A stretch of DNA of 64,000 bases from Terrimicrobiaceae bacterium (GTDB lineage: Bacteria > Verrucomicrobiota > Verrucomicrobiia > Chthoniobacterales > Terrimicrobiaceae): positions 620,001 to 684,000 of the forward strand of contig JAGYIV010000008.1 in the NCBI GenBank assembly GCA_018402345.1, in the 5' to 3' direction. Under the pieces are notes generated by a model, which saw only the letters and a program-made list of their open reading frames with translations, did no database searches and was not told the DNA's origin. The position numbers and the translations under genes are program-made. Below, in pieces: positions 6,601 through 55,401 of the stretch (its first letter is position 1; each line of letters opens with the position of its first letter).

Positions 6601-9600
6601 TTGCCAGTGCCGCTTACCGCAGTCCCTGTGAGCACAAGATGTTCGACATTCGCCGCCAGCGTGTGATCGACCGAACTGATGACCACATCCGTGCCGGCGT
6701 TCGCTCCCTCCACAACCACATCGCCCGCATCATCCACAAAGTAGGTGTCGTTCCCGGCGCCGCCGACCATCGAGTCCGCACCCGCGCCGCCAGAGATCGA
6801 ATCCGCTCCGCTGCCGCCCACAAATGTATCGGCCCCGCTTCCGCCAACAAATGTCGTCGATCCGCCCGCGAAGCCCGTTACTGCAAACCCTTCGCTCTGA
6901 TTGGCGAGATTCACGGTCAACCCGGTGGCTGTCACCACCACGTTCTCGATGTTCACGATCTGCTCGTCTCCGCTCGACGTGAAATTCGCCCCGATTGCCA
7001 GCGTGTCGATATCATCTCCGCCGTCCAACAACGCGTCTTCCTGCGACCCGATGATCGTGTCGTTCCCGGCCCCGCCGATCAGGCTATCCACTCCTGCGCC
7101 GCCAGAGATCGAATCCGCTCCGCTTCCACCAACAAATGTATCGTTTCCGCTTCCTCCCACAAATGTCGTCGATCCGCCCGCGAAGCCCGTTACCGCAAAC
7201 CCTTCGCTCTGATTGCCCAGATTCACGGTCAACCCTCCGGCTGTCACCACCACGTTCTCGATGTTCACGATCTGACCATCTCCGCTCGACGTGAAATTCG
7301 CCCCGATTGCCAGCGTGTCGATATCATCTCCACCGTCCAGCAACGCGTCTTCCTGCGACCCGATGATCGTGTCGTTCCCTGCCCCGCCGATCAGCGTGTC
7401 GATCCCCGCTCCGCCGTCCAGGCTGTTATCCTCATCGTTGCCGATGATCGAGTTCGCCAGCGCGTTACCCGTGCCGCTTACCGCAGTCCCTGTGAGCACA
7501 AGATGTTCGACATTCTCCGCCAGTGTGTGATCGACCGAACTGATCACCATATCAATTCCCTCTTCGGCATTTTCAACCACCACATCACCCGCATTGTCCA
7601 CAAAGTAGGTATCGTTCCCGAGGCCGCCGACCATCGAGTCGGCTCCAGCGCCGCCAGAGATCGAATCCGCTCCGCTTCCGCCCACAAATGTATCGTTTCC
7701 GCTTCCGCCCACAAATGTCGTCGATCCGCCCGCGAAGCCCGTTACTGCAAACCCTTCGCTCTGATTGCCCAAATCCACGGTCAACCCGGTGGCTGTCACC
7801 ACCACGTTCTCGATGTTCACGATCTGACCATCTCCGCTCGACGTGAAATTCGCCCCGATTGCCAGCGTGTCGATATCATCTCCGCCGTCCAGCAATGCAT
7901 CCTCCTCCGAGCCCACGATCGTGTCGTTCCCAGCCCCGCCGATCAGGCTATCCACTCCTGCGCCGCCAGAGATCGAATCCGCTCCGCTTCCACCAACAAA
8001 TGTATCGTTTCCGCTTCCGCCCACAAATGTCGTCGATCCGCTCGCGAAGCCCGTTACCGCAAACCCTTCGCTCTGATTGCCCAGATTCACGGTCAACCCG
8101 GTGGCTGTCACCACCACGTTCTCGATGTCCACGATCTGGCCATCTCCGCTCGACGTGAAATTCGCGCCGATTGCCAGCGTGTCGATATCATCTCCGCCGT
8201 CCAGCAACGCGTCTTCCTGCGACCCGATGATCGTGTCGTTCCCAGCCCCGCCGATCAGCGTGTCGATCCCCGCTCCGCCGTCCAAGCTGTTGCCCTCATC
8301 GTTGCCGATGATCGAGTTCGCCAGCGCGTTGCCAGTGCCGCTTACCGCAGTCCCTGTGAGCACAAGATGTTCGACATTCTCCGCCAGCGTGTGATCGACC
8401 GAACTGATCACCAAATCTGTGCCGGCGTTCGCTCCCTCCACAACCACATCGCCCGCATTGTCCACAAAGTAGGTGTCATTCCCGGCGCCGCCGACCATCG
8501 AGTCCGCACCCGCGCCACCCGAGATCGAATCCGCTCCGCTTCCGCCCACAAATGTATCGTTTCCGCTTCCGCCCACAAATGTCGTCGATCCGCCCGCGAA
8601 GCCCGTTACTGCAAACCCTTCGCTCTGATTGCCCAAATCCACCGTCAACCCGGTGGCTGTCACCACCACGTTCTCGATGTTCACGATCTGACCATCTCCG
8701 CTCGACGTGAAATTCGCCCCGATTGCCAGCGTGTCGATATCATCTCCGCCGTCCAGCAACGCGTCCTCCTCCGAGCCCACGATCGTGTCGTTCCCTGCCC
8801 CGCCGATCAGGCTATCCACTCCTGCGCCGCCAGAGATCGAATCCGCTCCGCTTCCACCAACAAATGTCGTCGATCCGCCCGCGAAGCCCGTTACCGCAAA
8901 CCCTTCGCTCTGGTTGCCCAAATCCACGGTCAACCCTCCGGCTGACACCACCACGTTCTCGATGTTCACGATCTGACCATCTCCGCTCGACGTGAAATTC
9001 GCCCCGATTGCCAGCGTGTCGATATCCGCTCCGCCGTCCAGCAACGCGTCCTCCTCCGAGCCCACGATCGTGTCGTTCCCGGCCCCGCCGATCAGGCTAT
9101 CCACTCCTGCGCCGCCAGAGATCGAATCCGCTCCGCTTCCGCCCACAAATGTATCGTTTCCGCTTCCGCCAACAAATGTCGTCGATCCGCCCGCGAAGCC
9201 CGTTACCGCAAACCCTTCGCTCTGATTGCCCAAATCCACGGTCAACCCGGTGGCTGTCACCATCAAGTTCTCGATGTTCACGATCTGCCCGTCTCCGCTC
9301 GACGTGAAATTCGCGCCGATTGCCAGCGTGTCGTTATCCGCTCCGCCGTCCAGCAACGCGTCTTCCTGCGACCCGATGATCGTGTCGTTCCCAGCCCCGC
9401 CGATCAGGCTATCCACTCCTGCGCCGCCAGAGATCGAATCCGCTCCGCTTCCGCCCACAAATGTATCGTTTCCGCTTCCTCCCACAAATGTCGTCGATCC
9501 GCCCGCGAAGCCCGTTACTGCAAACCCTTCGCTCTGATTGCCCAAATTCACGGTCAACCCGGTGGCTGTCACCACCACGTTCTCGATGTTCACGATCTGA

Positions 9601-9668
9601 CCATCTCCGCTCGACGTGAAATTCGCCCCGATTGCCAGCGTGTCGATATCATCTCCGCCGTCCAGCAA
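3537..9668 (-). CDS. Giant RTX-type repeat protein, segment 4
   Basis: A 2043-codon open frame that is an internal segment of the giant repeat protein, not an independent gene. Its apparent ATG lies inside a repeat unit and its last 30 or so residues are out-of-frame translation after a one-base deletion near 3618. The N-terminal half is the array of 104-residue units (DGGDDIDTLAIGANFT, IVNIENVVVTA, GFAVTGFAGGSTTFVGG, GADSISGGAGVDSL). It is followed by units with [12 protein letters not shown] and [14 protein letters not shown] motifs, then about 80-residue units. Glycine and aspartate dominate and cysteine is almost absent, as expected of RTX beta-roll proteins folded by extracellular calcium after type I secretion. 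No transporter genes are in the window. Confidence 0.8.
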   Translation of the reverse strand: MLDGGDDIDTLAIGANFTSSGDGQIVNIENVVVTATGLTVNLGNQSEGFAVTGFAGGSTTFVGGSGNDTFVGGSGADSISGGAGVDSLIGGAGNDTIIGSQEDALLDGGADNDTLAIGANFTSSGDGQIVNIENLMVTATGLTVDLGNQSEGFAVTGFAGGSTTFVGGSGNDTFVGGSGADSISGGAGVDSLIGGAGNDTIVGSEEDALLDGGADIDTLAIGANFTSSGDGQIVNIENVVVSAGGLTVDLGNQSEGFAVTGFAGGSTTFVGGSGADSISGGAGVDSLIGGAGNDTIVGSEEDALLDGGDDIDTLAIGANFTSSGDGQIVNIENVVVTATGLTVDLGNQSEGFAVTGFAGGSTTFVGGSGNDTFVGGSGADSISGGAGADSMVGGAGNDTYFVDNAGDVVVEGANAGTDLVISSVDHTLAENVEHLVLTGTAVSGTGNALANSIIGNDEGNSLDGGAGIDTLIGGAGNDTIIGSQEDALLDGGDDIDTLAIGANFTSSGDGQIVDIENVVVTATGLTVNLGNQSEGFAVTGFASGSTTFVGGSGNDTFVGGSGADSISGGAGVDSLIGGAGNDTIVGSEEDALLDGGDDIDTLAIGANFTSSGDGQIVNIENVVVTATGLTVDLGNQSEGFAVTGFAGGSTTFVGGSGNDTFVGGSGADSISGGAGADSMVGGLGNDTYFVDNAGDVVVENAEEGIDMVISSVDHTLAENVEHLVLTGTAVSGTGNALANSIIGNDEDNSLDGGAGIDTLIGGAGNDTIIGSQEDALLDGGDDIDTLAIGANFTSSGDGQIVNIENVVVTAGGLTVNLGNQSEGFAVTGFAGGSTTFVGGSGNDTFVGGSGADSISGGAGVDSLIGGAGNDTIIGSQEDALLDGGDDIDTLAIGANFTSSGDEQIVNIENVVVTATGLTVNLANQSEGFAVTGFAGGSTTFVGGSGADTFVGGSGADSISGGAGADSMVGGAGNDTYFVDDAGDVVVEGANAGTDVVISSVDHTLAANVEHLVLTGTAVSGTGNALANSIIGNDEGNSLDGGAGIDALIGGLGNDSYFVDSTTDTIVEEGGDSDDRVFASVSYNLSNTLAGGGDQIEHLDYTGVSGATLVGNALNNSIRGGSGADSIVGNGGVDTFIGGDGNDTYVVDSSDDAIEEQAGEGTDLVLVSATNYTLSANIENLTYTGTGDATFVGNALANVIDASSSGTNNLSGGDGNDTLVVDAARVGTVDGGDDNDTLRFVSTGGMTLVDAAFSGFESIESYDFSGVAGDINIAIGSAAQGLGVATLSGGAANSTLTANGDYTGNVHFTAGAGTDSLTGNTGNDTLVAGSGTARLIGNGGNDRFEFASGAQLANNTVVGGSGTDTLAFTAAATVTDAQFANVSGVEVVEASSLAGNSITLGANALASGVATLKGGAAGGDTLNAGGYTGANAKIWIDASESTLGSTLVGGLGDPAFTGGNTLHGGSGADLIQVATSAVLNNASIVGGLGTDTVQVTTDGQIVVDTDLDRLTGIEALQLANGSNSVTLGDVARGIATVAGGLDSITTGSGSDTLTATGAFGTTAITLDGGAGDDRFVFDNATQMAAASVVGGAGTDTLALGQATVLGNGDAFAKVSGMEVLQAAADGESSFVLDAIAQAAGIRTVIGGSGKGTLDASAYTVDVTLDASANANTTADQGATLLGGGGNDAFRLLNNNVLSVSSIEGGLGSDTLTFSEDGLSITDDNFARIASVEAIQTRNGTNYVNLGTAAAASGLLTLVGGTAADTIDAETFNGPSLTIDAGEGADEIIGSSSAANRILAGAGNDGITLANAAAVGRSTVVGGDGTDTLEMSEATTLVDGNLANVSGVEVLRAAATGASSLTVGANAQAGGVRTILGGGGNDTLNAAAYTVGMTLSGGAGDDSLVVRNGAVLAQSSIVGGDGVDTLAFSVDALSVTDAAFDNVFTTEVLRTANGDNRIVLGTNAEAAGIATVIGGAGKDTLDATAFTRALTLDGGQGDDSLFGGTGNDWLVGGDGADVLMAEPEPTRWWAARATTPTTLERTGIG
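3690..5760 (-). repeat. About 2-kb internal duplication (partner 11110-13150)
   Basis: The two stretches align colinearly with an offset of about 7.4 kb. Examples are tgtaggcgctcgcgtcc near 4700 and 12125, and cgagttccccgcaagcgacg near 5480 and 12883. Both encode the same series of about-80-residue units. A shorter third copy of part of the block lies at 2720-2960. It explains why unrelated-looking regions of the giant protein have almost the same sequence. Confidence 0.8.
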
Positions 9669-10400
9669 CGCGTCTTCCTGCGAGCCCGATGATCGTGTCG
9701 TTCCCAGCCCCGCCGATCAGGCTATCCACTCCTGCGCCGCCAGAGATCGAATCCGCTCCGCTTCCACCCACAAATGTATCGTTTCCGCTTCCGCCAACAA
9801 ATGTCGTCGATCCGCCCGCGAAGCCCGTTACTGCAAACCCTTCGCTCTGATTGCCCAAATCCACGGTCAACCCTCCGGCTGTCACCACCACGTTCTCGAT
9901 GTTCACGATCTGACCATCTCCGCTCGACGTGAAATTCGCGCCGATTGCCAGCGTGTCGTTATCCGCTCCGCCGTCCAGCAACGCGTCTTCCTGCGACCCG
10001 ATGATCGTGTCGTTCCCTGCCCCGCCGATCAGGCTATTCACTCCTGCGCCGCCAGAGATCGAATCTGCTTCGCTTCCTCCCACAAATGTATCGTTTCCGC
10101 TTCCGCCAACAAATGTCGTCGATCCGCTCGCGAAGCCCGTTACTGCAAACCCTTCGCTCTGATTGCCCAGATTCACCAGCAACCCAGTGGCTGTCACCAC
10201 CACGTTCTCGATGTTCACGATCTGACCATCTCCGCTCGACGTGAAATTTGCCCCGATTGCCAGCGTGTCGATATCATCTCCGCCGTCCAGCAACGCGTCT
10301 TCCTGCGACCCGATGATCGTGTCGTTCCCGGCTCCGCCGATCAGCGTGTCGATCCCCGCTCCGCCGTCCAGGCTGTTGCCCTGATCGTTGCCGGTGATCG
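6870..10400 (-). repeat. Array of 312-bp (104-residue) repeats in the giant gene
   Basis: Ten near-identical copies can be counted from the anchor gacgtgaaattcgcc (plus strand), at about 6976, 7288, 7840, 8152, 8704, 8989, 9301, 9613, 9926 and 10238. Neighbouring copies are 312 bp apart. Larger gaps hold one inserted [12 protein letters not shown]-type unit, and one gap of 285 bp lacks a 27-bp piece. Each copy encodes EDALLDGG, TSSGDGQIVNIENVVV, NQSEGFAVTGFA and GADSISGG motifs. Differences between copies are mostly synonymous or single substitutions. Confidence 0.9.
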
Positions 10401-23922: not shown

Positions 23923-26900
23923 TCAGACAATCTGGCCCATCAAGTCCGAGAGTGAGGCGATGCTGGCTTGTGGCGTATAAGGTTGGTCCACATATTGTGC
24001 AAAGTTGCTAGTGCCCAACTCATAAAATTGCCCCCAACCCATAGTTTTAGGTGCATTGGCATAATCTGATTGCAGGTAGGTTTCCCCCGTGTAGCCATTT
24101 CTTGCGACTAACTCGTTGTTTTGCACTCCATCAAAATTAGCATCAAACCCAAGAGCACCATCCCTGTTAGTATCTAATAGATCCGTTGAGGATTTAATCA
24201 CAGCAATAAGCTTAGGAGCCTCAATACCTATCGTTGTAATAGCACCAGTTAATGTGTCGGCGGTCGACTGAACTTTACCAGTATAATAAATTCCGAACTC
24301 CATTCCAGTAAACTCCTCAGATCCGTCAACGCCGGATGGTGTCACCTTGATATCGCCCAATTTTTTAGAATCATCGCTTGAAGGCAATGCGCCGATCGAA
24401 AATTCATTAATATCCCCATTCAATGTAAGAACATCTCCGGGTTCAAAGTCCCTAATCACAACAAAATCATCGTCCTTGTAAACAGACGTTGCTTTTCTCC
24501 AGACCCAACGCGCTGGAGTCCCGGCGGTTGGATCCGCCGCCACATTTTCAATCTCAGGCTCCCAAGTCATTGCACCTCTGTATTCTCGCACTCCTTTCCC
24601 ATCATCCACAATGAAATTATCCGAGCTTCGCGACCCATCGAGATCGATGACCCCATCCCCATCGACATCCACATTCCCATCGCCAATTAGCGTATCGATA
24701 CCGGTCGCCCCAACTCCTCCACCAAAGAGGATATTGTCGAACTCATTTCCAACAATGAGGTTGGATCCTGTTCCTGGGTTGCCTGTGGATGAAGCGTTCC
24801 CCGTGCCATCCCGCGCGGTAGGAGCGCCCATTTGGAGAACAAGGTTGGAGATGTCCTCGGCGATTGTGTAGCTGTTCATGGCAAGGGTCTCGCCTTCTTC
24901 ATATCCCGTCCACCAGAGGTTGTCGGAGTCGGTGAAGGTCACGGTGTCGTTACCGCCATTACCGAAGACGGCGTCACCGAATTCAATAAATTTCGAAAAC
25001 CCGGGTTCAATCTCTCCAGGCCCGGCGCTCACAAAGAAGTTGTCGCCCTTTTTATTGTCGGTTTCCGAACCGACCAATGAGTCGTAACCAGCGCCGCCGT
25101 CGAGGGTAGAGGCATCGTTGGCGACCAAAGTGTCTCGGTTGCGATTGGGGTCGAAGACCCTGCCGTAGTAGCCGGGCACGAACCAGAACTGGCTGGGATC
25201 GGCGGTTCCGGGACCATTCGGGTCGGCAGGAATCGGGTCGGTATCGCGGAAGATGCTGGATGTTAATCCATTTCCTCCATCCGCAATCGAGGCAAAATCC
25301 CGGATAGCGAACCCGACATTATCGAGGCCATAGGCATTGCCGCCGATAAGCACATTTCCCGCTCCGGAACCCACGATGCTGTCGCGCCCGGTGCCGCCGA
25401 CGAGGGTGTTCAATCCAAACCCTCCGTCGTAAATATAATTGTCCAACCGGTTGCCCATGCCGAATTGGCCGGCACCAGCTAGTCCGAGTTGGTCGATGTA
25501 TTTGCCTTGGTGGATCAAGGTGTCACTCAAGCTGAGGTAGGACACTGCGGAGATCACAAGATTGTGTTGGCCGCCATTGAGCGAAGCTCCGACACCGCCT
25601 TCGCCGTAGTTCACAGGCGTTTCGTTCCCACGCTTCATAACCCAGTCAAACTCATCGCCGAGTGCTTGGCCACCGTTGAGCACCACAAAGGTATCGCTCC
25701 CTTGACCGCCATCAAGCGTGTTGAGTCCCTTGAAAGTAATCCCTTGGAACTCGTAGTCATCACCGGAACCGTCATTGACAAACGCACCGGCCAGGAGATC
25801 GTCGCCAAACCCGCCATCCACATACGTGGCAAATCCCTGAGGGAGAGTCGGCCTGTGCTGGTAAGGACCGGGGTTGAAAATGAAGCCCGTGGGAAGTGGC
25901 GCGATCGGATTATTACCCACCAGCGGAAGAGTGTAGCCATCTAACAAAACACCTCCGGGAAGGCCCTTGGTCAGCCGCAATCCGAAGATACCGTCGTTGC
26001 CCGCACCGCCTTGGAGCGTGACATGCTGCGCCGCAACGGGCTTGCCTGCACCATCCGCATCCCTCACAACAGGAATCGCCAATCGTTGGGCGGTCACGCG
26101 GAAGTCGTATGCGCCATCCTCCAAATTGGTCACTGTGAGCGCCGGGTTCTCCGGGGTGCCCTTGAAATCCTGCGATGTGCCGTTGACGTAGGTCAGCCAG
26201 ATGGCATCCGGATTTCCAACTGCCTTGTATTCCACGGTATACCCTACGACCTCGGACTCAAAAAACGGCTCGGCAGCCCAGGAGAGGTCGAACTGGTATT
26301 TCCCGACATTCCTCAAATCATCAAACTTTGGCCCGACAGAGAGATTTCCATGCAGGGTCGTGAACTGCTCGGCTCCGTTTACGGAATACATCAATTCCAT
26401 GGTGTTCGCATTATCCTGCCCTACAACAAGCGAACCCACACTAAGAGCCACCGTGCGATTGTTTCCACCCTCGGTGCCGAAAAATGACGCATAGCTGGCA
26501 ACCTGGTCTTGGCCGGTGATCGAGTTGCCGTTCTCGTCGCGGTCTTGGGATTTCACCATGAGCATGAGCTTGCTGATGCCGTCCGGTGCCTTGGAGATAT
26601 TCACGGAGGTGATGAGTTCATTGCCCCCGCCGCCGGTGGCGACAATATAGTCATCCGTGTGGTCCTGCACGAAGGTATCGCTACCATCCCCGCCGATCAT
26701 CGTGTCGAACCCGCGTCCGCCGTCGAGGTAGTCATTCCCCGCGCCACCCTCGAGGTAATCGCTGCCATAGGAACCGACCACGCCGTCCATGAACGCCTTC
26801 GTGCGCGTATCGGTGGGCGCCGTGGCATAGAGGTCTGGGCTGGCGTAGAAATCCGGGGTGTCGCCGTAGAGTGTGTCGTCGCCGGCATTTCCGATCAAGG

Positions 26901-29900
26901 TATCCTCGCCGCCCATACCGAGTAGGAGCGCAGAGGAGTTGCCTGCAGTAATAGAATTCCCCAAGGCATTGCCCACGCCATAGACCGCTTCGCCGAGCAA
27001 CTCGAAGTTCTCGAGATTGTAGAAGGATTCCAAATCCTTGGAGGCAAAGGAAGGCGCCTTGGTCGTGGAGGGCGAGTTATCGGGTTGGTTGGGTTGGAAT
27101 TGCTCCAACTCGCTGCCTTGGATCGGGTCGAAGTTAAAATAGGTGCGCACGAGATCCGTGCCGCCATCGAGACCAGCGATTTCATTGATCACGCGGTCGT
27201 TGCGGTCGTTGACGATGTATGTGTCATCGCCGAGGCCGCCATCCATCGTGTTTTGGCCGGATCCCCCATCCAGCAGATCGCCGCCATCGCCGCCGATGAG
27301 GTAGTCGTTGCCTCCTTGGCCGAGGAGGGTGTCGTTGCCTGCCGCCCCGACAAGGAGGTTGTCGCCGAAGTTGCCCACGAGGCTGTTTGGATCGCCATTG
27401 CCGAGCACGTAGAGGTTCGCGGAACCCACGAGGCTGGCATGCTCAACATTCGCAAAATTGTTCTGCAAATCGATATCGAAGCCTTCGCCAGTGCTCGAGT
27501 CCAGACCGGCAGCCGAGGCTGCGTCATCCAACGCGAAATAACCGGCAGCGAGGTCGGTTGCGAAATCCCGAACGACCGTGCTGATCTTAAACACACCAAG
27601 GTCATCCGTGCCACCGTCGTCCTCTTCAACAACAATATCCTCAGCAACATCAATGTAGTAGGTGTCGTTCCCAGCCCCGCCGATCATTAAATCCATTCCA
27701 TTCCCACCATCAATGAGATCGCCACCGGCACCGCCGAGAAGCGTGTCGAGAGGCAACGCGACTTGCCCGTCGCCGCTTCCTGCAAGAGTCGCTTGGAATA
27801 CCTCACCCACAACCGACTTTGCCGCTCCCAAACTTATCCAGTTCGTTGTTCCCAAAGATGTAATCTGATAGTATCCTCCAATTGCTATATCGATCGCATC
27901 AATGATCTGCCTAACCTGTCCAGTGCCGCTTCCAGCACTAGTCGCTTGAAAAATCGTGCCTAAAGCCAAGCTTGAGGCACCAATGTTAACCCAGTTCGTC
28001 GTTCCTGGGGAGGTAATTTGATAAAATTCCCCGACTACTATATCTGTCGCACTGACCCCATGGTCTAAGTCCACACTCCCAGGGATGCCATTCGTGCCAC
28101 CCATCAAGATGTCACCAAGGAAATTCCCCTCCGCATCGCGACCAGCCACCGCGACAAGCTTGTCGGCCCCCAGTCCGCCGATCAAGGTGTCGGAGGCGTT
28201 GTCGGCGAGGACTTCGGGGAAGTCGTTGGATGCCTTGAGAACAACGTCACTTATAAAACCTAACTCACCCTCGCGAATGAGGAGATCGGGGTTAACATCA
28301 AAGAAGACAGTGTAGGAACCCAATGCCGGTCCAGCTGCTGTCACGGGGATATAAAACTCCCCATCGTCAAATGATGTGAAGCTAAATCCACGAATATTAT
28401 TTTGCTCGAAAAACTTGCCGTTTTGTTGACCAAAGTCAACAGGTCGCCGTAAATCAGTAGAATCTAAAATTCCTAGAGCATTTGATCTATCGCTATTTAA
28501 AATTAGAGACTGATGGGTCAAAAATCCAACAAAATCCCCAACCTCACCGAACTGGTCTCCGACTACCCCAAACGCGACATCACTATTTACCCTTAATGCT
28601 TCACTAATGCTCCCTGCATATTCTCTTACAATTCTAAAATAATAAGTCACACCCGCTTGGAGCGACACCCGAAGCCAGTCGGAGTCCTGACGAAATTCGA
28701 TTTTCCCTTGATACTTTTGGCCGACAGCGAGCGTGATCGGCGTCGCGGCATCGGCAGGAATATCCGTCTGAGGTTGTCCACCACCGACCAGGAAATCATT
28801 ACCCGCACCGCCATTGACGACATCCGCTCCCAGACCTGCGATCACGGTGTCATTTCCCGCCCCGGCATCGAGGCGGTTGTCGCCGTCATTGCCGGTGATG
28901 AGATTATCGGAATCGCTGCCGGTTCCTCGCAGCGCCGCATCACCGATCAGGTAGAGATTTTGGATATTGGCGGCGATGTTTGGGTTGTATTTCAGGGAGA
29001 AATCCACCGTGCTGGCGACAGTGTTGGTGCCCTCGGTGTCCTGATAAGTGTAAGCCGTCTGGGAATTCACGACATACCAGTCGTCCCCCGCGCCGCCGGC
29101 CAGCGTGTCGCTGCCCTTGCCGTCGCGGAGCGTGGTGCCGAGCGAACCGACCACCACACCATCCGCCCATTGGGTCACGACCAGCGTGTCGTTTCCAGCT
29201 CCACCGACGAGGCTGTCTGTGGTGTCGCCGCCAAATATATAGTCATCGCCATCACCGCCGCGAATGGCATTGCGAACGGTCAATCCTCCGTAAATCGTGT
29301 TATTGCCGTCATTTCCGGTAAGGTTTGAATTGCTTCTGCCTTTGTATTCCAGCACTTCGACATTGGTGGCCGCCGCCATGCTATAGGTCGGAATCGCGGT
29401 GGAAATCGTATCATTGCCACCGAGGGCATCATCCAACTCCACAATCCTGGTGGTAACGTTGTCGACGAAATAGAAGTCATCGCCCTGCCAACCAATCAAG
29501 GTGTCCCCCGCAGACCCGAAGAGCGTGTCGGCATCGGTGCCGCCGGTAAGGACGTTTGCGAGAGCGTTCCCCGAGAGGGTGGCCGAGCCAGTGCCGATAA
29601 AGGTGAGGTTCTCGACATTTGCGATGCCGAGGTCAGCCAACGAGGTTTCGTTGATGGTGGTCAGAATCGTGTCATTGCCTTCGCCGGGCAGTTCCACGAT
29701 TTGGTCCAGGGTGTCGCGGTAAACATAGAAATCATCCCCCGGGCCACCGATGAGGAGGTCTTCGACGGCATCCTGCCCACCATCCAGCGTGTCGTTGCCC
29801 CCACCGCCGAAGATCGTGTCCTTCCCGCTGCCGCCGTTCAGGGAGTTGTTTCCGGAGTTTCCAACTATGGTATTGGCTTTCAGATTTCCTGTGCCGGAAA

Positions 29901-30096
29901 TGTTCCCCGAGCCGGTCAGCACGAGGTTCTCCACGACCGGATGCTTGCTGAGATCGAAGGAGACTGAGGAATACACCGTGTCATTCCCGCCTGGATCGCG
30001 GATCTCCACATCCGCCCTGTCCACAGTGAAGGCATCGTCGCCAAAGGTGCCAAGCAATGGCTGGGTGGGAGAAGTCGTCCAGGTTTCAACTGTCAT
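23923..30096 (-). CDS. RTX-type calcium-binding multidomain protein
   Basis: A 2057-residue predicted secreted protein. It opens with RTX units ([35 protein letters not shown]). Residues about 445-600 resemble a PPC/jelly-roll domain (DSDWLRVSLQAGVTYYFRI, ending SYTVFFDVNPD). Residues about 680-776 hold two copies of a short YYQITSxGTTNWxxxGA module. Residues about 1259-1337 are fibronectin type III-like (YTVEYKAVGNPDAIWLTYV, YDFRVTAQRL). Many further RTX units follow, and the C-terminus contains VVIRDFEPGDVLTLNG and ends SIASLSDLMGQIV, compatible with a type I secretion tail. The frame is intact throughout. Unlike the giant protein, the repeats are diverged. Its natural N-terminus may be the domain encoded just upstream at 30197-30784. 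Confidence 0.85.
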   Translation of the reverse strand: MTVETWTTSPTQPLLGTFGDDAFTVDRADVEIRDPGGNDTVYSSVSFDLSKHPVVENLVLTGSGNISGTGNLKANTIVGNSGNNSLNGGSGKDTIFGGGGNDTLDGGQDAVEDLLIGGPGDDFYVYRDTLDQIVELPGEGNDTILTTINETSLADLGIANVENLTFIGTGSATLSGNALANVLTGGTDADTLFGSAGDTLIGWQGDDFYFVDNVTTRIVELDDALGGNDTISTAIPTYSMAAATNVEVLEYKGRSNSNLTGNDGNNTIYGGLTVRNAIRGGDGDDYIFGGDTTDSLVGGAGNDTLVVTQWADGVVVGSLGTTLRDGKGSDTLAGGAGDDWYVVNSQTAYTYQDTEGTNTVASTVDFSLKYNPNIAANIQNLYLIGDAALRGTGSDSDNLITGNDGDNRLDAGAGNDTVIAGLGADVVNGGAGNDFLVGGGQPQTDIPADAATPITLAVGQKYQGKIEFRQDSDWLRVSLQAGVTYYFRIVREYAGSISEALRVNSDVAFGVVGDQFGEVGDFVGFLTHQSLILNSDRSNALGILDSTDLRRPVDFGQQNGKFFEQNNIRGFSFTSFDDGEFYIPVTAAGPALGSYTVFFDVNPDLLIREGELGFISDVVLKASNDFPEVLADNASDTLIGGLGADKLVAVAGRDAEGNFLGDILMGGTNGIPGSVDLDHGVSATDIVVGEFYQITSPGTTNWVNIGASSLALGTIFQATSAGSGTGQVRQIIDAIDIAIGGYYQITSLGTTNWISLGAAKSVVGEVFQATLAGSGDGQVALPLDTLLGGAGGDLIDGGNGMDLMIGGAGNDTYYIDVAEDIVVEEDDGGTDDLGVFKISTVVRDFATDLAAGYFALDDAASAAGLDSSTGEGFDIDLQNNFANVEHASLVGSANLYVLGNGDPNSLVGNFGDNLLVGAAGNDTLLGQGGNDYLIGGDGGDLLDGGSGQNTMDGGLGDDTYIVNDRNDRVINEIAGLDGGTDLVRTYFNFDPIQGSELEQFQPNQPDNSPSTTKAPSFASKDLESFYNLENFELLGEAVYGVGNALGNSITAGNSSALLLGMGGEDTLIGNAGDDTLYGDTPDFYASPDLYATAPTDTRTKAFMDGVVGSYGSDYLEGGAGNDYLDGGRGFDTMIGGDGSDTFVQDHTDDYIVATGGGGNELITSVNISKAPDGISKLMLMVKSQDRDENGNSITGQDQVASYASFFGTEGGNNRTVALSVGSLVVGQDNANTMELMYSVNGAEQFTTLHGNLSVGPKFDDLRNVGKYQFDLSWAAEPFFESEVVGYTVEYKAVGNPDAIWLTYVNGTSQDFKGTPENPALTVTNLEDGAYDFRVTAQRLAIPVVRDADGAGKPVAAQHVTLQGGAGNDGIFGLRLTKGLPGGVLLDGYTLPLVGNNPIAPLPTGFIFNPGPYQHRPTLPQGFATYVDGGFGDDLLAGAFVNDGSGDDYEFQGITFKGLNTLDGGQGSDTFVVLNGGQALGDEFDWVMKRGNETPVNYGEGGVGASLNGGQHNLVISAVSYLSLSDTLIHQGKYIDQLGLAGAGQFGMGNRLDNYIYDGGFGLNTLVGGTGRDSIVGSGAGNVLIGGNAYGLDNVGFAIRDFASIADGGNGLTSSIFRDTDPIPADPNGPGTADPSQFWFVPGYYGRVFDPNRNRDTLVANDASTLDGGAGYDSLVGSETDNKKGDNFFVSAGPGEIEPGFSKFIEFGDAVFGNGGNDTVTFTDSDNLWWTGYEEGETLAMNSYTIAEDISNLVLQMGAPTARDGTGNASSTGNPGTGSNLIVGNEFDNILFGGGVGATGIDTLIGDGNVDVDGDGVIDLDGSRSSDNFIVDDGKGVREYRGAMTWEPEIENVAADPTAGTPARWVWRKATSVYKDDDFVVIRDFEPGDVLTLNGDINEFSIGALPSSDDSKKLGDIKVTPSGVDGSEEFTGMEFGIYYTGKVQSTADTLTGAITTIGIEAPKLIAVIKSSTDLLDTNRDGALGFDANFDGVQNNELVARNGYTGETYLQSDYANAPKTMGWGQFYELGTSNFAQYVDQPYTPQASIASLSDLMGQIV
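27768..28055 (-). repeat. Two tandem YYQITSxGTTNW modules in the RTX protein
   Basis: Two copies of an about 45-residue module: VGEFYQITSPGTTNWVNIGA and IGGYYQITSLGTTNWISLGA, each followed by GxxFQATxAGSGxGQV. From memory, related short modules occur in phage tail and capsid decoration proteins. The DNA here is richer in A/T than the flanking RTX units, suggesting separate origin. Confidence 0.7.
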
Positions 30097-50516: not shown

Positions 50517-51674
50517 TCACCCCCACTCCCATGGACCACGTGTGCCGGTGAATGTTCCCGAGATCGGGAGCTCGGTCCAATTGACCCTGGTGAGCTCGAG
50601 ATCATTAACGATCGATTCGATGGCGAACCAGCGCGGGAGTGGCACTTTCACGGGATCGGCCTCGCGCCACGGCATGTCGGGTTGGTCGCGCACGAGGACA
50701 TCGCGCAGGGAGGGGATGTCCTCGCCGGGGGCCCAGCCGAGCACGACCTTGGCCTCGTGGTGACCTGAGCGGACAAGGCGCTTGGCAAGTTGGCGGGCTC
50801 GAAGCGGGCCGCAACGGTCGACTTTCCAGACATCCTTGCCGCACAGCGCGCCGCCTCCGATCGGCACCGAGGGGCCGTAGTGGTCGACAACGAGTTTTTT
50901 TCCCGAGAGTCCGTTATCACCGCGGGGGCCGCCGATGACGAAATCCCCGGCGCCATTGAGGTGCAGATGCTCTGGCAAAAAGGAGGAAAGGGCTCCCTTG
51001 AGTGCCGCGATCTCGATCCCTTCGAGGTAGGCGGTAAGGATCGGCAAGATCGTGCGGTGTTGCTCCTCCATGGTAACCCCCCGCGCATGCTGGATGCTCA
51101 GAACCAACTTACGCCACGTGATCGCCTGGCCGTCGGTGGTGAGATCGACGAGGATTTTGAAATCCGGACCGAATCGGTCGGCGTGTTGCTGCCGGAACGA
51201 CCCGAATGCCAACCCAAGGGCATGCGCAAGAAAATGGGCGGGCGGCACGTCATTGGTCGAGGGACTTGCGATGGCATAGCCGATCACGATGTTCTGGTCG
51301 TCCGAGTAGGGGCGGATGTCGGCCTCCTCGGCGGAGAGTTCCTCCTCGCAAACCCGCGTGATCACCTTGAGCGAATTCGGGGAGGGGCCCCAGCGTTTGC
51401 TGTAGCCGGCGAGGTCGTAGACATTGCGGGCGATGTCCCGGAAATCAACGGGGAGGACCGGTTCTCCTTTTTGAGGGCGCTGCACGGCAATGCGTCCGTC
51501 GATGAACACTGTGGATTCGTGGATTGCGACCTCCACGCCCGCGAGCGAGCGGTTGGGTTCGCCGGGGTTGGTGCGTGGAGACTGGACGAGATCGACAATG
51601 CGGTTGGCGATGGCATCGGCAAGGCGGTCGGGGTGTCCTGGCGAGACATATTCAGCTTGGTCGTGGGTTTTCAT
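50517..51674 (-). CDS. Divergent S-adenosylmethionine synthetase (MetK-like)
   Basis: A 385-residue homologue of MetK. It retains YVSPGHPDRLADAIANRIVD (canonical SEGHPDK, with the catalytic His and metal-binding Asp), RFGPDFKILVDLTTDGQ (region of the catalytic Lys), FVIGGPRGDNGLSGKKLVVD and GGGALCGKDVWKVDR. The usual GAGDQG motif is replaced by YSDDQNIVIGYA. I chose the ATG at 51674, which overlaps the stop of the VWA gene (ATGA), making this the last gene of the MoxR operon. It probably can make S-adenosylmethionine from methionine and ATP, but sequence drift and context suggest a specialised paralogue rather than the housekeeping enzyme. Confidence 0.8.
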   Translation of the reverse strand: MKTHDQAEYVSPGHPDRLADAIANRIVDLVQSPRTNPGEPNRSLAGVEVAIHESTVFIDGRIAVQRPQKGEPVLPVDFRDIARNVYDLAGYSKRWGPSPNSLKVITRVCEEELSAEEADIRPYSDDQNIVIGYAIASPSTNDVPPAHFLAHALGLAFGSFRQQHADRFGPDFKILVDLTTDGQAITWRKLVLSIQHARGVTMEEQHRTILPILTAYLEGIEIAALKGALSSFLPEHLHLNGAGDFVIGGPRGDNGLSGKKLVVDHYGPSVPIGGGALCGKDVWKVDRCGPLRARQLAKRLVRSGHHEAKVVLGWAPGEDIPSLRDVLVRDQPDMPWREADPVKVPLPRWFAIESIVNDLELTRVNWTELPISGTFTGTRGPWEWG

Positions 51675-53026
51675 ATCGGGAGTCGTAGGATGCGGGCGTT
51701 GAGTTTTTGGAATTCGGAACCCGAGTCGTGGCCGACGATGGCGGCGAAAAACCGGAGTCTCGAGAGATTGCGGACATGCGTGGAGTGGGGCGTGCCAACC
51801 CATCCGTCGGTAACCAGCAGCACACGGCGCGGGCGTTTTCGAGGGGTGATGGATTCCAGATGCCGGAGGACGCAATTGATGTCCGTGCCGAAGGTGTTCG
51901 GCACCTTGCACTCGAGGTTGCGCGGTTCGACTTCACCCACCACGGTGGAAAACACAAAGAGGCGCAGCAGGCCCTGCTTGTGCGGACGGCGGAGCGCGGC
52001 GGCGAGTTTGGGCAGGACAGAACTCATCGAGCCGCTGATGTCCAGATAGACATGGGCGACAGGAAGCGGTTGGAGCCGGCGGCGCTCCTCGACTTGGACT
52101 CCGCGATAAATCAACGGCCATGCTCCGTGCAATGAACGCCAAGCGGGAATGCGGCGGTCGCGGGCTTGGGGCACCACAGTCTCGATCGAACGCGCGACGG
52201 CGGTTCTCGACAGGCGGCGTGGGGCGTTGGCCGCAGCAGCGCGAATGCCTGCCTTGCGGAGGAGGTCTTCGAAAATGCGACGGATGTTTTTTTGCGGATC
52301 CTCCGAAGCGTCGAGTTTCCAGGAGTAGGTCGGCAAGCCTTGATCGCGGCCGCTGAGAATGCGGTCGGGGCGGGGCCACTTGGAGACGATATCGCGAATG
52401 GCTTTCCCGAAAAACGGGTCCTCGGCGCTGTCAGCACCTTCGTCGGAATGATTGCCGAGCAACACGCACTGGCCGCCGGGGTTTTTCTCCAGCGATTCTA
52501 CGAGAAGCTCGAAGACCTCAAGGTAGGTGGCTCCGACCTTGGCGGGACCGTAGAGGAGTTCGACGACGCGCTGTTCCTTGGCACTGGCGTCCTCAGGTAG
52601 CTTGAGGCTGCGCGGCCAGAGGCGCGGCGGGCGCAGGAGCCGGGCTGGAAAGCTCGCGGCATCGTTGATCGCGGCGAAGAACGACCAATAGCGCTCCTCG
52701 GGAAACTGGTGGCAGAGCATGGCGTTGATCACCGCATCGAAGGCGAGGTTGTGGGCCTTGGTGGGGCGCGGAAACAGGCGCGTGTGGCCGAGCACGACAT
52801 GGTGGAGTTCGTGCAGCACAAGCATGAGAAGGTGCTCGTCGGTGCGGCAGTATTCCTCGATGAAGCCGGGATTGAGACGGAGGCGCGGACGCGCGGTGCA
52901 GTCCACGCAGGCGGTCGGGATCGACTCATCGAGAACGATGTCGAGCAGCGAGAGGAGTTCCTCCATCTGCCAAGTGGCGGCTGGGACCACATTGTAAATA
53001 CGGGTTCGGATGTCGTTGGCAGTCAC
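51671..53026 (-). CDS. DUF2201-type metallopeptidase plus VWA-like protein
   Basis: A 451-residue protein. The N-terminal half has a zinc-peptidase motif LVLHELHHVVLGHTRLF (HExxH at about residue 70) followed by LAFDAVINAMLCHQFP. The C-terminal half is a VWA-like domain with the MIDAS-type start VYLDISGSMSSVLPKLAAAL (about residue 327) and VLLVTDGWVG. This combination is the DUF2201 family, which is commonly encoded beside MoxR AAA ATPases. It starts at the GTG at 53026, overlapping the previous stop (GTGA). The much longer open frame upstream is an artefact on top of the MoxR gene. Its targets are unknown; chaperone-like remodelling with MoxR is inferred from the pairing. Confidence 0.8.
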   Translation of the reverse strand: MTANDIRTRIYNVVPAATWQMEELLSLLDIVLDESIPTACVDCTARPRLRLNPGFIEEYCRTDEHLLMLVLHELHHVVLGHTRLFPRPTKAHNLAFDAVINAMLCHQFPEERYWSFFAAINDAASFPARLLRPPRLWPRSLKLPEDASAKEQRVVELLYGPAKVGATYLEVFELLVESLEKNPGGQCVLLGNHSDEGADSAEDPFFGKAIRDIVSKWPRPDRILSGRDQGLPTYSWKLDASEDPQKNIRRIFEDLLRKAGIRAAAANAPRRLSRTAVARSIETVVPQARDRRIPAWRSLHGAWPLIYRGVQVEERRRLQPLPVAHVYLDISGSMSSVLPKLAAALRRPHKQGLLRLFVFSTVVGEVEPRNLECKVPNTFGTDINCVLRHLESITPRKRPRRVLLVTDGWVGTPHSTHVRNLSRLRFFAAIVGHDSGSEFQKLNARILRLPI

Positions 53027-53460
53027 AGGGCGCCCTCCCACACCTCGGCGGTGAATGGTTTTTGGTTGAGGAGATGGCCCGCCGAGTAATCGGGTTGGCG
53101 CGAGCGCACATAGATCTCGCCCACGCGGCGGGAGAGGACGGCGATCGAGAAGACGGTGTCGGTCAGCGCGTAGTATTTTGAGTTGTCCGTGGAATGAGAA
53201 CGAACCCCGATGAGAAAGGCTGGCATGTTGCGGACGGCGGCCTCGACCTGCTCGCGGGGTGGAATGTTGTCCAGCCCGCAGTCGAAGATCGGGCGTGCGA
53301 GATTGCGTTTCGTCAGCGGCTTTGCGGGCTGTGTCAGTTGGAACACAAAGAATGATCCGGTGACCGCTGAAACCCTCGAGTCGAACGAGGTTCGCGGGGG
53401 CGCACTCATGTTGTGGAGAACGCCTGTGGGAGTGATGGAATAGCTGCTGGCGCTCAACAT
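53023..53460 (-). CDS. Unknown protein of the MoxR operon
   Basis: A 145-residue protein that I do not recognise. Visible elements are RVSAVTGSFFVFQLTQPAKP, then LARPIFDCGLDNIPPREQVE, MPAFLIGVRSHSTDNSKYYA and RVGEIYVRSRQPDYSAGHLL. It has no signal peptide or membrane helix. It starts at the ATG at 53460, overlapping the end of the MoxR gene by 7 bases, and its stop overlaps the start of the metallopeptidase-VWA gene, so it is translated as part of the same operon and may be a subunit of that complex. Confidence 0.7.
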   Translation of the reverse strand: MLSASSYSITPTGVLHNMSAPPRTSFDSRVSAVTGSFFVFQLTQPAKPLTKRNLARPIFDCGLDNIPPREQVEAAVRNMPAFLIGVRSHSTDNSKYYALTDTVFSIAVLSRRVGEIYVRSRQPDYSAGHLLNQKPFTAEVWEGAL

Positions 53461-54401
53461 GGCAGGTGGAATTTGGCCCAGAGGGTGTTGAAGGTTTCGC
53501 GCAGGTCGGCGGGTTTGGTTCCCTTGTAGCCATCGGGCAGGAGGCTCTGGAGAAGGTTGCGGCAATGCTTGTCGCGGAGGGTGTCGCTGAGGCCAGAGCA
53601 CACGGCGGCGGTTTCCCGGCAGGCGGTGAGCTGCGTGCCGTGGACCTGGTGCGTGATCCTTGATGGCTGGATGGCTTCGCGGGCCTCGGTGGCGAGGGTT
53701 TCCACGGCGATGGCCGGCAGTTCCCGCCTGTCGCGCACCGAGAGGTAGACGACCAGCGCCAGGGCGCGGCGGTGGGCTTTGTCCACCTGCGCGGCGAAGG
53801 CCGTGGTGAGGAGTCCCGTGAAATCGGCGGTGTCGATGGATTTTCCCAACCCGGTGGCGAGGGCGAGTCGATCGACGGGATCGGATAGGGCGAGGATTTG
53901 TCGCCAAGGATCCGAGGCGTCGAGCCCGCAGAGGCTCCAGGCCTGACGGTGTGCGGCAAGAAGCGAAGAGGCTTTGGTTTTCACACCTTGGGCAATGCCG
54001 GGAAGTCCGTGCCGGAGCGCCAACCAAGCGGCGTCCTCCCAGCCTGGGCGCGTTTGGCCGGCCGCTTCCGCGAGCACCGTGCGCGAGGCTTGGATCGCGA
54101 GGATCGAGCGCAGGAGCGTGGTGATGCGGCGAGTGGAGAGCTCATGGCCAGCCTTGGCGGCGAGGGGCGCTAGCGCAATGAGATAGTCGGCGAGCGTCTC
54201 CGGTGGCGATTGGGTGAGGACTTCAAGGACGGTGCGGGTTTTGAAAACGAGTTCGGGAACCGCAACGGGAAATTCATGGCGGCCACGAAACTGGTCGAGG
54301 AGAATCGCCTTTCGGGCCTCGTCCGTGAGGGTGTCCCAGCCAGGGAACCTCGATAATGAAGGCGAAGCGGTCGGCCAGCGCGGGGTCGAGTGGTTCCGCA
54401 C
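53454..54401 (-). CDS. MoxR-type AAA ATPase, C-terminal part (after frameshift)
   Basis: C-terminal part of the ATPase in a shifted frame. The genuine sequence joins at GWDTLTDEARKAILLDQFRG (about 54340), where the N-terminal frame reads DRFAFIIEVP. What follows is helical: the ATPase lid (LADYLIALAPLAAKAGHELS, TRRITTLLRSILAIQASRTV) and a long all-alpha extension ending LRETFNTLWAKFHLPC. The ATG at 54401 is in the wrong frame for the upstream part and is not a real start. Joined length with 54274-54957 is about 500 residues. Confidence 0.72.
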   Translation of the reverse strand: MRNHSTPRWPTASPSLSRFPGWDTLTDEARKAILLDQFRGRHEFPVAVPELVFKTRTVLEVLTQSPPETLADYLIALAPLAAKAGHELSTRRITTLLRSILAIQASRTVLAEAAGQTRPGWEDAAWLALRHGLPGIAQGVKTKASSLLAAHRQAWSLCGLDASDPWRQILALSDPVDRLALATGLGKSIDTADFTGLLTTAFAAQVDKAHRRALALVVYLSVRDRRELPAIAVETLATEAREAIQPSRITHQVHGTQLTACRETAAVCSGLSDTLRDKHCRNLLQSLLPDGYKGTKPADLRETFNTLWAKFHLPC

Positions 54402-54957
54402 CGTGGTAGGCGGGCTCGTCGTCGGTGTCCTCGTCCGGCGGAGGATTCATCGCCGCCCAGCGGTAGCGGAGTTTCTCCAGGCGGATGCCTTGGATGCGGC
54501 GCTCGTGGATGATCGGGAAGAGCTTGTTTTGAAGCTCCGGACGCGCGCGGCTGATTTCGTCGATAAAGACGACCTCGGCATCCCAGATTGCCGAGGGCGT
54601 GCTGATGTAGCGCAGCGAGGTCTGCGTTTCGTCGGGCACGGGAATCCCGACGAGATCGTCGTAGTTGACCAGCGAGGCGTTGTAGAAGCGGAACTCAAGC
54701 GCGAGGGACTCGGCGAGACGCTCGAGGAGAAAACTCTTCGCGGTGCCGTGGCGGCCGATGAGCAGGAGTGGATCGCCCGAGGCGAGTGCCGCCAACACAA
54801 CAGGTTCGAGGTGCGCCCAGCCTTCAAGACCGAGCGGTTGCGTGAGCAACGATGGCGCGGGCGGAGTGCGCTCGGCAACGGGTTGGGTTTCAACCGGGGC
54901 GGCAGCCGGATCGCCTTTGCGTTTACTCGGCGTTTTGCTGCGGGGCACGGCGCTCAC
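54274..54957 (-). CDS. MoxR-type AAA ATPase, N-terminal part
   Basis: ATPase domain of a MoxR-family AAA protein. Walker A is LLIGRHGTAKSFLLERLAES (about residue 70), Walker B is EVVFIDEISRARPELQNKLF (about 130), then sensor 1 AAMNPPPDED and the arginine-finger segment EPLDPALADRFAFIIEVP. The segment YNASLVNYDDLVGIPVP is the MoxR pore/initiator region. It starts at the GTG at 54957, overlapping the stop of the 72-residue gene (GTGA). An extra base near 54338-54341 shifts the frame, so the last residues after EVP are artefact and the lid is in 53454-54340. Confidence 0.75.
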   Translation of the reverse strand: MSAVPRSKTPSKRKGDPAAAPVETQPVAERTPPAPSLLTQPLGLEGWAHLEPVVLAALASGDPLLLIGRHGTAKSFLLERLAESLALEFRFYNASLVNYDDLVGIPVPDETQTSLRYISTPSAIWDAEVVFIDEISRARPELQNKLFPIIHERRIQGIRLEKLRYRWAAMNPPPDEDTDDEPAYHGAEPLDPALADRFAFIIEVPWLGHPHGRGPKGDSPRPVSWPP

Positions 54958-55172
54958 AGCGCACCTCCCTTCACTGCACGGCGCAGGAGTTGGTCCCTCA
55001 GCTTGCGGGCCCGCTCGATGCACGGCGTGCCGAGGCTCTGGCGGACCCGGCGCTTGGTGTAGTCGGGGAGGTGGATCGTATAGTGACACCAAAAGGTGCC
55101 GTTGTTGTTCCAGAGGTGGTGGTCTGGATTGTCCGCAAGGATGCGGATGGATGCGACGGGTGTTTGTTTCAT
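54954..55172 (-). CDS. 72-residue basic protein, first gene of the MoxR operon
   Basis: A small basic protein reading HHLWNNNGTFWCHYTIHLPD, then YTKRRVRQSLGTPCIERARK and LRDQLLRRAVK. The WxCxYTxHxPDxxKRRVRxSLGT pattern followed by a helix looks like the three-stranded arm-type DNA-binding domain at the N-terminus of tyrosine recombinases, but without any catalytic part. A DNA-binding regulator of the operon is therefore possible. It has its own ATG (55172) and overlaps the ATPase start by four bases. Confidence 0.65.
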   Translation of the reverse strand: MKQTPVASIRILADNPDHHLWNNNGTFWCHYTIHLPDYTKRRVRQSLGTPCIERARKLRDQLLRRAVKGGAL

Positions 55173-55213: not shown

Positions 55214-55246
55214 AAAAAAACCGCCTGCTCCCATCAGGAGCGGCGG
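55214..55246 (-). terminator. Intrinsic terminator upstream of the MoxR operon
   Basis: On the minus strand GCCGC/GGAGC arms pair (plus-strand ccgcctgctcc and ggagcggcgg with a 5-base loop and one bulge) and are followed by seven T residues (complement of 55214-55220). It ends transcription 40 bases before the ATG of the 72-residue gene, so it terminates a separate short RNA or acts as an attenuator. Confidence 0.65.
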
Positions 55247-55395
55247 TTCATTATTGGCCGTGGAGATTTTTGTTGTTCGGGTCTTTCGACCCGCACATCG
55301 CTTGGGTTGTTCCAAGCAAGCCACCGTGGGATGTTCTCCATCTCCCCGGTTGGCACCCTGACCCGCCCGATGCGGCCACAGGAATTCCTGATGCA
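55214..55395 (-). ncRNA. Candidate structured non-coding RNA or leader
   Basis: An about 180-base unit with its own promoter and terminator and no convincing ORF. Within it a long-range stem pairs 55373-55378 with 55255-55260 (TGGCCG with CGGCCA). It encloses three good hairpins: GATG-loop-CATC (55330-55342), GCTTGG-aacaac-CCAAGC (55300-55317) and CGGGTC-GAAA-GACCCG with a GNRA tetraloop (55278-55293). It does not match the SRP, tmRNA, RNase P, TPP, cobalamin or SAM-I signatures I know. A 6S-type RNA or an attenuator for the MoxR operon are open possibilities. Confidence 0.35.
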
Positions 55396-55401
55396 CCGCT
55401 A

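What the first reader, a model, noticed from the sequence alone, without database searches (positions are those of the whole stretch)
50517..55172. MoxR-DUF2201 operon that ends in a divergent MetK
Five genes overlap end to start (GTGA, ATGA, 7-base overlaps): a basic arm-like 72-residue protein, MoxR ATPase, an unknown 145-residue protein, a metallopeptidase-VWA protein and a MetK homologue with an altered GAGDQG motif. MoxR with VWA partners is known as a chaperone-like remodelling pair and occurs in predicted conflict systems. A dedicated S-adenosylmethionine synthetase in the same operon is, as far as I know, not described and suggests SAM supply or SAM sensing coupled to the machine.
Basis: partly seen in the sequence, partly recalled or inferred. 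Interest (0 to 1): 0.75.

Follow-up and report, generated by a model that had tools for sequence, protein, structure and literature searches.

The report
SAM-riboswitch operon with altered MetK
A small set of genes that recurs together in several bacterial groups is preceded by an RNA sensor for the cofactor SAM and ends in a relative of the SAM-making enzyme that kept its ATP-handling parts but lost the parts that recognise methionine, so it probably does a new, still unknown reaction with the help of a protein-remodelling machine.

Summary
The five-gene order is real and conserved. One correction: this copy's MoxR gene has a one-base frameshift (54343-54345); relatives are intact and selection persists beyond it, so it is an assembly error or recent mutation. 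A search keyed only to the divergent MetK ("MetK2") found 37 family loci; 35 have DUF2201 directly upstream, preceded by U145 and MoxR where sequence reaches. One lacks upstream sequence and one is a decayed fragment. A canonical metK exists elsewhere in this genome, and 27 of 30 related genomes hold two or more metK-like genes, so the link is not accidental. First, the leader (55399-55262) matches a SAM-I/IV riboswitch, the only one detected in the genome; relatives carry SAM-I/IV or SAM-I there. Second, MetK2 is one clade that keeps the ATP/triphosphate residues but has replaced residues that grip methionine (E55R 34/34, Q98 lost 34/34, I102 lost 34/34, I302P 34/34). I read it as a SAM-regulated module: a NorQD/CbbQO-like MoxR-VWA remodeller serving a neofunctionalised adenosyltransferase with an unknown acceptor. 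Acceptor and client are inferred. Nothing found links it to conflict or defence.

The parts
55262..55399 (-). SAM-I/IV riboswitch aptamer (Rfam RF01725) in the operon leader; P1 5' strand CATCAGGA at 55393-55386
   Evidence: 37.5 bits (gathering 41.1), E 8.5e-5 on 271 bases, all pairs standard; only RF01725 site with E<=0.001 in the 3.1-Mb genome; homologous leaders of relatives score above gathering
55214..55247 (-). Terminator-like hairpin with T run between aptamer and first gene; its strand TCCTGATG (55239-55232) is complementary to the P1 5' strand
   Evidence: sequence; 8-bp complementarity, shuffle P 0.043 here, 11-12 bp in several relatives
54954..55172 (-). Arm protein, 72 aa, like the N-terminal arm domain of tyrosine recombinases (DUF6538-like); probably nucleic-acid binding
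   Evidence: 15 of 17 family members match PF20172 (best E 1.4e-5), window copy below cut-off; dN/dS 0.16-0.28
54346..54957 (-). MoxR AAA+ ATPase, N-terminal (AAA) part, GTG start
   Evidence: AAA_5 6.9e-15, bpMoxR and AAA_3 above cut-off; RavA is the nearest solved relative of the family by sequence
54343..54345 (-). Frameshift site: one extra base in a CCC run (GTTCCCTGG against GTTCCGGG in L021)
53454..54342 (-). MoxR C-terminal part, in the shifted frame
   Evidence: continuous with intact MoxR of relatives; dN/dS 0.12-0.17
53023..53460 (-). U145, unknown 145-aa protein with a near-invariant M-S-x-P-P-R motif (M at 53409)
   Evidence: 27-sequence alignment; confident model pLDDT 87 without a solved fold match; no Pfam family
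51671..53026 (-). DUF2201 metallopeptidase-VWA protein (GTG start), NorD/CbbO/CoxE-like partner of MoxR
   Evidence: DUF2201_N and VWA_CoxE above cut-off; HExxHxxxxH and MIDAS D-x-S-x-S, T, D conserved in 30 sequences; best solved fold match is NorD of the NorQD complex
50517..51674 (-). MetK2, divergent MetK paralogue, 385 aa, with a remodelled methionine pocket

Best explanation
This is a self-contained operon of the SAM regulon that recurs in distant bacteria. Shown by sequence: a SAM-riboswitch leader; the gene order (Arm)-MoxR-U145-DUF2201-MetK2; a MetK2 clade that keeps the residues that bind and cleave ATP and bind triphosphate but has replaced residues that hold methionine; intact Zn-peptidase and MIDAS motifs in DUF2201. 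Inferred: when SAM is low the riboswitch lets the operon be made. MoxR and DUF2201 form an ATPase-plus-adaptor remodeller like NorQD or CbbQO. Its client is the module's own MetK2, perhaps with U145, which it activates, resets or processes. MetK2 transfers the adenosyl group of ATP to an acceptor other than free L-methionine. Confidence by step: conserved operon 0.97; SAM-class riboswitch 0.9; loss of normal methionine recognition 0.8; catalytically active on another acceptor 0.45; MetK2 as client of MoxR-DUF2201 0.5.
For: Linkage: a scan with motifs of MetK2 alone found 39 loci, 37 of the family; 35 have DUF2201 directly upstream, with U145 and MoxR before it where sequence reaches. Extra copy: canonical metK elsewhere in this genome; 27 of 30 related genomes have at least two metK-like genes. 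Riboswitch: RF01725 in the window, the only site in the genome at E<=0.001; above gathering in nine homologous leaders, E<=0.05 in eight more, and SAM-I (RF00162) in two Firmicutes-type loci. The same RNA, with the same J1/2 bases, precedes canonical metK in genome G402. Pocket: E70R 34/34, Q113 lost 34/34 (E in 30), I117 lost 34/34, I322P 34/34, R264K 34/34, while 37 of 37 other MetKs keep E, Q, I, I, R; H29, D31, E57, D134, D179, K181, F250, D258, K265, K285, K289, D291 are kept (human numbers). Roles of E55, Q98, I102, K269, D238 in E. coli MAT: PMC3853416, PMC1282579. Clade support 1.0. NorD is the best fold match of DUF2201. Purifying selection on every gene. MoxR/VWA pairs mature dedicated complexes: PMC3893208, PMC9976466.
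Against: No biochemistry exists and no acceptor is identified. D238 and K269, which also touch methionine, are kept, so weak methionine use cannot be excluded. That the client is MetK2 rests on analogy and gene order. The window riboswitch scores 3.6 bits below Rfam's gathering score. Close variants of SAM aptamers can bind other ligands (PMC10853860), so SAM as ligand is not proven. Four related operons (L017, L018, L028, L031) hold a canonical-like MetK, which suggests that plain SAM supply matters in at least part of the family. L056 holds a decayed MetK2 fragment without partners.
Confidence: 0.45

Rival explanations
1. MetK2 is a regulatory, prozyme-like subunit: it pairs with the housekeeping MetK and changes its activity when SAM is low, while MoxR-DUF2201 assembles or takes apart the mixed oligomer.
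For: MAT active sites are built from two subunits, and E55, Q98, I102 and K269 come from the partner subunit (PMC3853416), so a mixed dimer would keep one complete site; a second metK is present in nearly all genomes; prozyme precedent for AdoMet decarboxylase in trypanosomes (PMC6221367).
Against: Residues of both half-sites are kept, and the replacements are themselves invariant (R70, P322, K264 in 34 of 34), which looks like a new function and not decay of one half-site. MetK2 is only about 27% identical to canonical MetK.
Confidence: 0.2
2. MetK2 is simply an auxiliary SAM synthetase with a rebuilt methionine pocket that supplies SAM under starvation and needs MoxR-DUF2201 for activation.
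For: SAM riboswitch control as for ordinary metK; four related operons carry a MetK with a canonical pocket; ATP residues kept; archaeal MATs hold the methionine carboxyl group with quite different residues (PMC3853416).
Against: Charge reversal E55R, the near-constant Q98E and loss of both hydrophobic contacts are shared across several phyla, whereas even distant phage MetKs keep the canonical residues. L028 and L031 hold both MetK1 and MetK2, which suggests that the two are not redundant.
Confidence: 0.2
3. A conflict or anti-phage system that uses a MoxR-VWA core and a dedicated SAM-related enzyme.
For: Patchy occurrence (7 of 388 genomes of the phylum have the DUF2201 protein) and spread over phyla; MoxR-VWA cores occur in predicted conflict systems (PMC7159879); the Arm protein resembles a recombinase domain.
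Against: No PADLOC match of note; no shared defence or mobile neighbours; housekeeping flanks in the window; no plasmid or phage copy of DUF2201; SAM-riboswitch control fits metabolism better.
Confidence: 0.07
4. Accidental neighbourhood or annotation artefact.
For: MoxR is frameshifted in this copy.
Against: Same order in 35 loci and purifying selection on all genes.
Confidence: 0.01

Closest known systems
NorQD / CbbQO / CoxDE / RavA-ViaA, the MoxR AAA+ and VWA remodelling pairs
   Same: MoxR ATPase and VWA partner with intact MIDAS from one operon; the best solved fold match of DUF2201 is NorD; [quoted passage not shown]
   Different: The VWA partner carries an N-terminal HExxH metallopeptidase-like domain; the putative client is a MetK paralogue; the operon is under a SAM riboswitch
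MoxR with metallopeptidase-vWA pair of group 2.2 jumbo phages (PMC7824862)
   Same: Same domain pairing
   Different: No MetK or riboswitch described there; P0002 finds no phage protein at E<=1e-3
vWA-MoxR ternary conflict systems (PMC7159879; Pfam bpMoxR)
   Same: MoxR-VWA core; bpMoxR profile matches above cut-off
   Different: No VMAP or beta-propeller component, no effector domains; the paper does not mention DUF2201, MetK or SAM synthetase
Bacterial MetK / human MAT (solved structures such as 5h9u, 2obv, 1fug)
   Same: Same three-domain family over 377 residues and the ATP/triphosphate residues
   Different: Methionine-gripping residues replaced; own clade; fixed genetic partners
SAM-I/IV riboswitch (RF01725; PMC2864571)
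   Same: Aptamer architecture and leader position; the same RNA precedes canonical metK in G402
   Different: Controls a MoxR operon, an association I did not find described
Phage-encoded MetK near a DNA adenine methyltransferase
   Same: Accessory MetK besides the host's own
   Different: Phage MetKs keep the methionine pocket and some sit by a consumer of SAM; no methyltransferase is conserved here

Membership tests
Methionine adenosyltransferase (MetK), EC 2.5.1.6 | three-domain S-AdoMet_synt family | tested here: met
   N and C domains above Pfam cut-off, M just below; full-length match to solved MATs
Methionine adenosyltransferase (MetK), EC 2.5.1.6 | ATP, triphosphate and catalytic residues (H14, D16, K165, D118, F230, D238, K245, K265, K269, D271) | tested here: met
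   kept across the clade; R244 replaced by K
Methionine adenosyltransferase (MetK), EC 2.5.1.6 | methionine-pocket side chains E55, Q98, I102, I302 | tested here: not met
   R, mostly E, variable and P in MetK2; conserved in 37 of 37 other MetKs
Methionine adenosyltransferase (MetK), EC 2.5.1.6 | NCBI equivalog score | tested here: not met
   TIGR01034 137.8 bits against cut-off 309.4
Methionine adenosyltransferase (MetK), EC 2.5.1.6 | makes SAM from ATP and methionine | not testable with these tools
   needs an assay
MoxR-VWA remodelling pair | MoxR-type AAA+ with P-loop and Walker B | tested here: met
   GRHGTAKS and VVFIDE motifs; AAA_5 6.9e-15, bpMoxR above cut-off; frameshifted in this copy, intact in relatives
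MoxR-VWA remodelling pair | VWA partner with complete MIDAS | tested here: met
   D329, S331, S333, T378/T381, D407; NorD fold match
MoxR-VWA remodelling pair | oligomer that acts on a client | not testable with these tools
   needs biochemistry
SAM-I/IV riboswitch | multistem aptamer with GCCAACC ... GGUGGC core | tested here: met
   alignment with all pairs standard
SAM-I/IV riboswitch | score at or above Rfam gathering | tested here: inconclusive
   37.5 against 41.1 bits here; above it in nine homologous leaders
SAM-I/IV riboswitch | binds SAM and switches expression | not testable with these tools
   only alternative pairing of the P1 5' strand with downstream bases was seen
vWA-MoxR ternary conflict system | VMAP or effector component next to MoxR and vWA | tested here: not met
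   partners are U145 and MetK2; no PADLOC match of note

The most novel reading that the evidence does not exclude
MetK2 is an adenosyltransferase with a new acceptor: it uses the MAT reaction on ATP to make a compound or a protein mark other than SAM, in a module controlled by SAM and served by a MoxR-VWA machine. One specific form, not excluded, is that the acceptor is a methionine inside a protein, such as the near-invariant Met of U145's MSxPPR motif, which would explain why residues for the free amino and carboxyl groups are gone.
Probability: 0.35. Interest if true: 0.92.

Novelty: new variant of a known kind. Interest (0 to 1): 0.77.

Why it matters
All characterised MetK-family enzymes I know of do one reaction. 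A clade with the same ATP machinery but a rebuilt acceptor pocket would be the first sign of a second MAT-type reaction. Its fixed link to a MoxR-VWA remodeller under SAM control would also give that poorly understood class of machines a candidate client that can be assayed. The riboswitch makes the metabolic context testable.

Tried and rejected
Accidental linkage: rejected. Programmed frameshift in MoxR: rejected, relatives are unshifted. Archaeal-type MAT: no hit in the genome. Defence island: no support. Plasmid or phage carriage: none found for DUF2201; in viral contigs only a distant canonical-pocket MetK. Altered riboswitch ligand because of J1/2 AGGA: weakened, since the same bases precede canonical metK in G402 and, by coordinates, G280. 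Conserved consumer of SAM beside the operon: none; LexA-like genes at 4 loci are the most frequent neighbour. U145 fold: no solved match. L056, the one MetK2 with upstream sequence but no partners, proved to be a truncated fragment. I did not test whether the DUF2201 metallopeptidase domain cleaves anything, and MAG contamination may explain some odd taxon names.
Full report
Observation. One correction: MoxR is split over two frames. ORF 54957-54274 runs into ORF 54401-53454 at a CCC run (54345-54343) where this copy has one extra base. L021, L022 and L024 read through in one frame, and the part behind the shift has a low dN/dS (0.12-0.17) close to that of the part before it (0.08-0.12). So it is an assembly error or a very recent mutation, not a programmed shift.

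Is the MetK the only one? No. The genome has a canonical metK at C2:60027-60344 (E 1.8e-34). Of 30 genomes with the operon or its variant, 27 have two or more metK-like genes; the three exceptions (G390, G391, G399) are genomes reached through MAG loci, and in one genome (G408) both copies look divergent.

Is the neighbourhood conserved? A first look with the DUF2201 protein found 7 of 388 genomes of the phylum. Besides the window, G178 and G334 show the same five-gene order, and G280 the last four on two contigs, with a MetK of 45-53% identity; G140 and G161 have Arm, a canonical-like MetK ('MetK1'), then MoxR and DUF2201. I then searched 84,980 species genomes with motifs found only in MetK2. 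Of 39 loci, 37 belong to the family. In 35 of these DUF2201 lies directly upstream, and U145 and MoxR precede it wherever sequence reaches (U145 was not recognised in the broken locus L047). L052 begins 139 bases before MetK2 and says nothing. L056 is a truncated MetK2 fragment without partners in the 1.7 kb before it. The other two loci (L058, L059) are short canonical-pocket MetKs of Patescibacteria without partners. Record titles name Verrucomicrobia, Lentisphaerae, Kiritimatiellae, Planctomycetota and a few others; some MAG names may be wrong. L028 and L031 carry both MetK1 (after Arm) and MetK2 (at the end).

What is MetK2? It aligns over its whole length with solved MATs. In a tree of 71 MetKs the 34 MetK2 sequences form one clade with support 1.0; the operon MetK1s form another clade within the canonical part. 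Residue by residue (human numbers with E. coli in brackets), E70[55] is R in 34 of 34, Q113[98] is E in 30 and never Q, I117[102] is never I, I322[302] is P in 34 of 34, R264[244] is K in 34 of 34. In 37 of 37 other MetKs, including phage ones, these are E, Q, I, I, R. Kept are H29[14], D31[16], E57[42], D134[118], D179[163], K181[165], F250[230], D258[238], K265[245], K285[265], K289[269], D291[271]. In E. coli MAT, Glu55 and Asp238 hold the methionine amino group, Gln98 and Lys269 the carboxyl group, and Ile102 touches the side chain (PMC3853416; PMC1282579). That I302 lines the pocket is from general knowledge. So ATP handling is kept and methionine handling is rebuilt. R264H in human MAT1A weakens the oligomer and the activity (PMC7271947); here the change is to lysine.

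The leader. Rfam's SAM-I/IV model matches 55399-55262 with 37.5 bits and only standard pairs. It is the only such site with E<=0.001 in the genome. Homologous leaders pass the gathering score in L034, L038, L039, L042, L054, L055, L043, L032 and L094 and have E<=0.05 in eight others; two Firmicutes-type loci have the SAM-I family instead. Six of the 17 short leaders searched stayed below that limit though most show a similar core by eye; L053 (Uhrbacteria) shows none by eye. In G402 the same RNA lies directly upstream of canonical metK with the same J1/2 bases; G280 has the same arrangement by coordinates. This makes SAM the likely ligand, though variants of this aptamer with another ligand are known (PMC10853860). 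In the window the P1 5' strand CATCAGGA is complementary to TCCTGATG in the terminator hairpin, and many relatives show 7-12 bp of such complementarity, with a matching change on both sides in L017; in the rumen-type leaders it is not above shuffled controls. I infer an OFF switch, that is, expression at low SAM; this was not measured.

The partners. DUF2201 has invariant HExxHxxxxH and conserved MIDAS residues in 30 sequences. Its model (pLDDT 81, pTM 0.47) matches solved NorD of the NorQD complex best. MoxR's nearest solved relative by sequence is RavA. U145 is conserved and confidently modelled but without a known fold; it has a near-invariant M-S-x-P-P-R motif. Arm resembles DUF6538, which from general knowledge is found at the N-terminus of recombinases, and was not found in the Kiritimatiellae- and Firmicutes-type operons, so it is accessory.

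Mechanism. MoxR ATPases are thought to help mature dedicated protein complexes (PMC3893208), and NorQD and CbbQO act on a specific enzyme (PMC9976466). By that analogy the constant partner at the end of the operon, MetK2, is the best candidate client. MetK2's kept ATP site and rebuilt acceptor site suggest adenosyl transfer to something other than free methionine. The alternatives, a prozyme-like subunit of MetK or an auxiliary SAM synthetase, are not excluded.

Known or new. In the open-access papers searched I found no description of a MetK or a SAM riboswitch linked to MoxR; subscription papers were not searchable. The metallopeptidase-vWA pairing with MoxR itself is known from jumbo phages (PMC7824862).

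Noticed in passing
54343-54345: One-base frameshift in MoxR in an otherwise selected gene.
   Followed up: yes
L028 5483-6586, L031 5478-6614, L017 5464-6570, L018 6758-7870: Second type of operon-linked MetK (MetK1) with a canonical methionine pocket, placed after Arm; forms its own clade.
   Followed up: partly
L125 about 9700-10097: A second SAM-I/IV riboswitch followed by an Arm-like reading frame and a metallophosphoesterase in genome G334, away from the operon.
   Followed up: partly
L126 13297-13401 and L127 8468-8577: Two more strong SAM-I/IV riboswitches in genome G402, upstream of proteins I could not name; possible further members of the regulon.
   Followed up: no
L021 5048-5671, L026 1500-1928, L031 12606-13367, L038 1-486: LexA-like genes near the operon at four loci.
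   Followed up: no
L022 1732-2892: A second, weaker DUF2201-like protein just upstream of the operon (E 1.7e-13).
   Followed up: no
L056 1727-2206: Truncated MetK2 fragment (71% identical to that of L014) without operon partners: apparent relic of a lost operon.
   Followed up: partly
L058 3109-4032 and L059 9980-10903: Shortened MetK (307 aa) with canonical pocket but F250W in Patescibacteria.
   Followed up: no
L060 9959-11083: Distant canonical-pocket MetK on a 354-kb viral contig.
   Followed up: no
L110, L111, L112: Phage MetKs with a DNA methyltransferase gene close by: accessory SAM supply of a more ordinary kind.
   Followed up: partly
3537-9668 and 23923-30096: Two minus-strand ORFs of more than 2000 aa in the window, not examined.
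   Followed up: no
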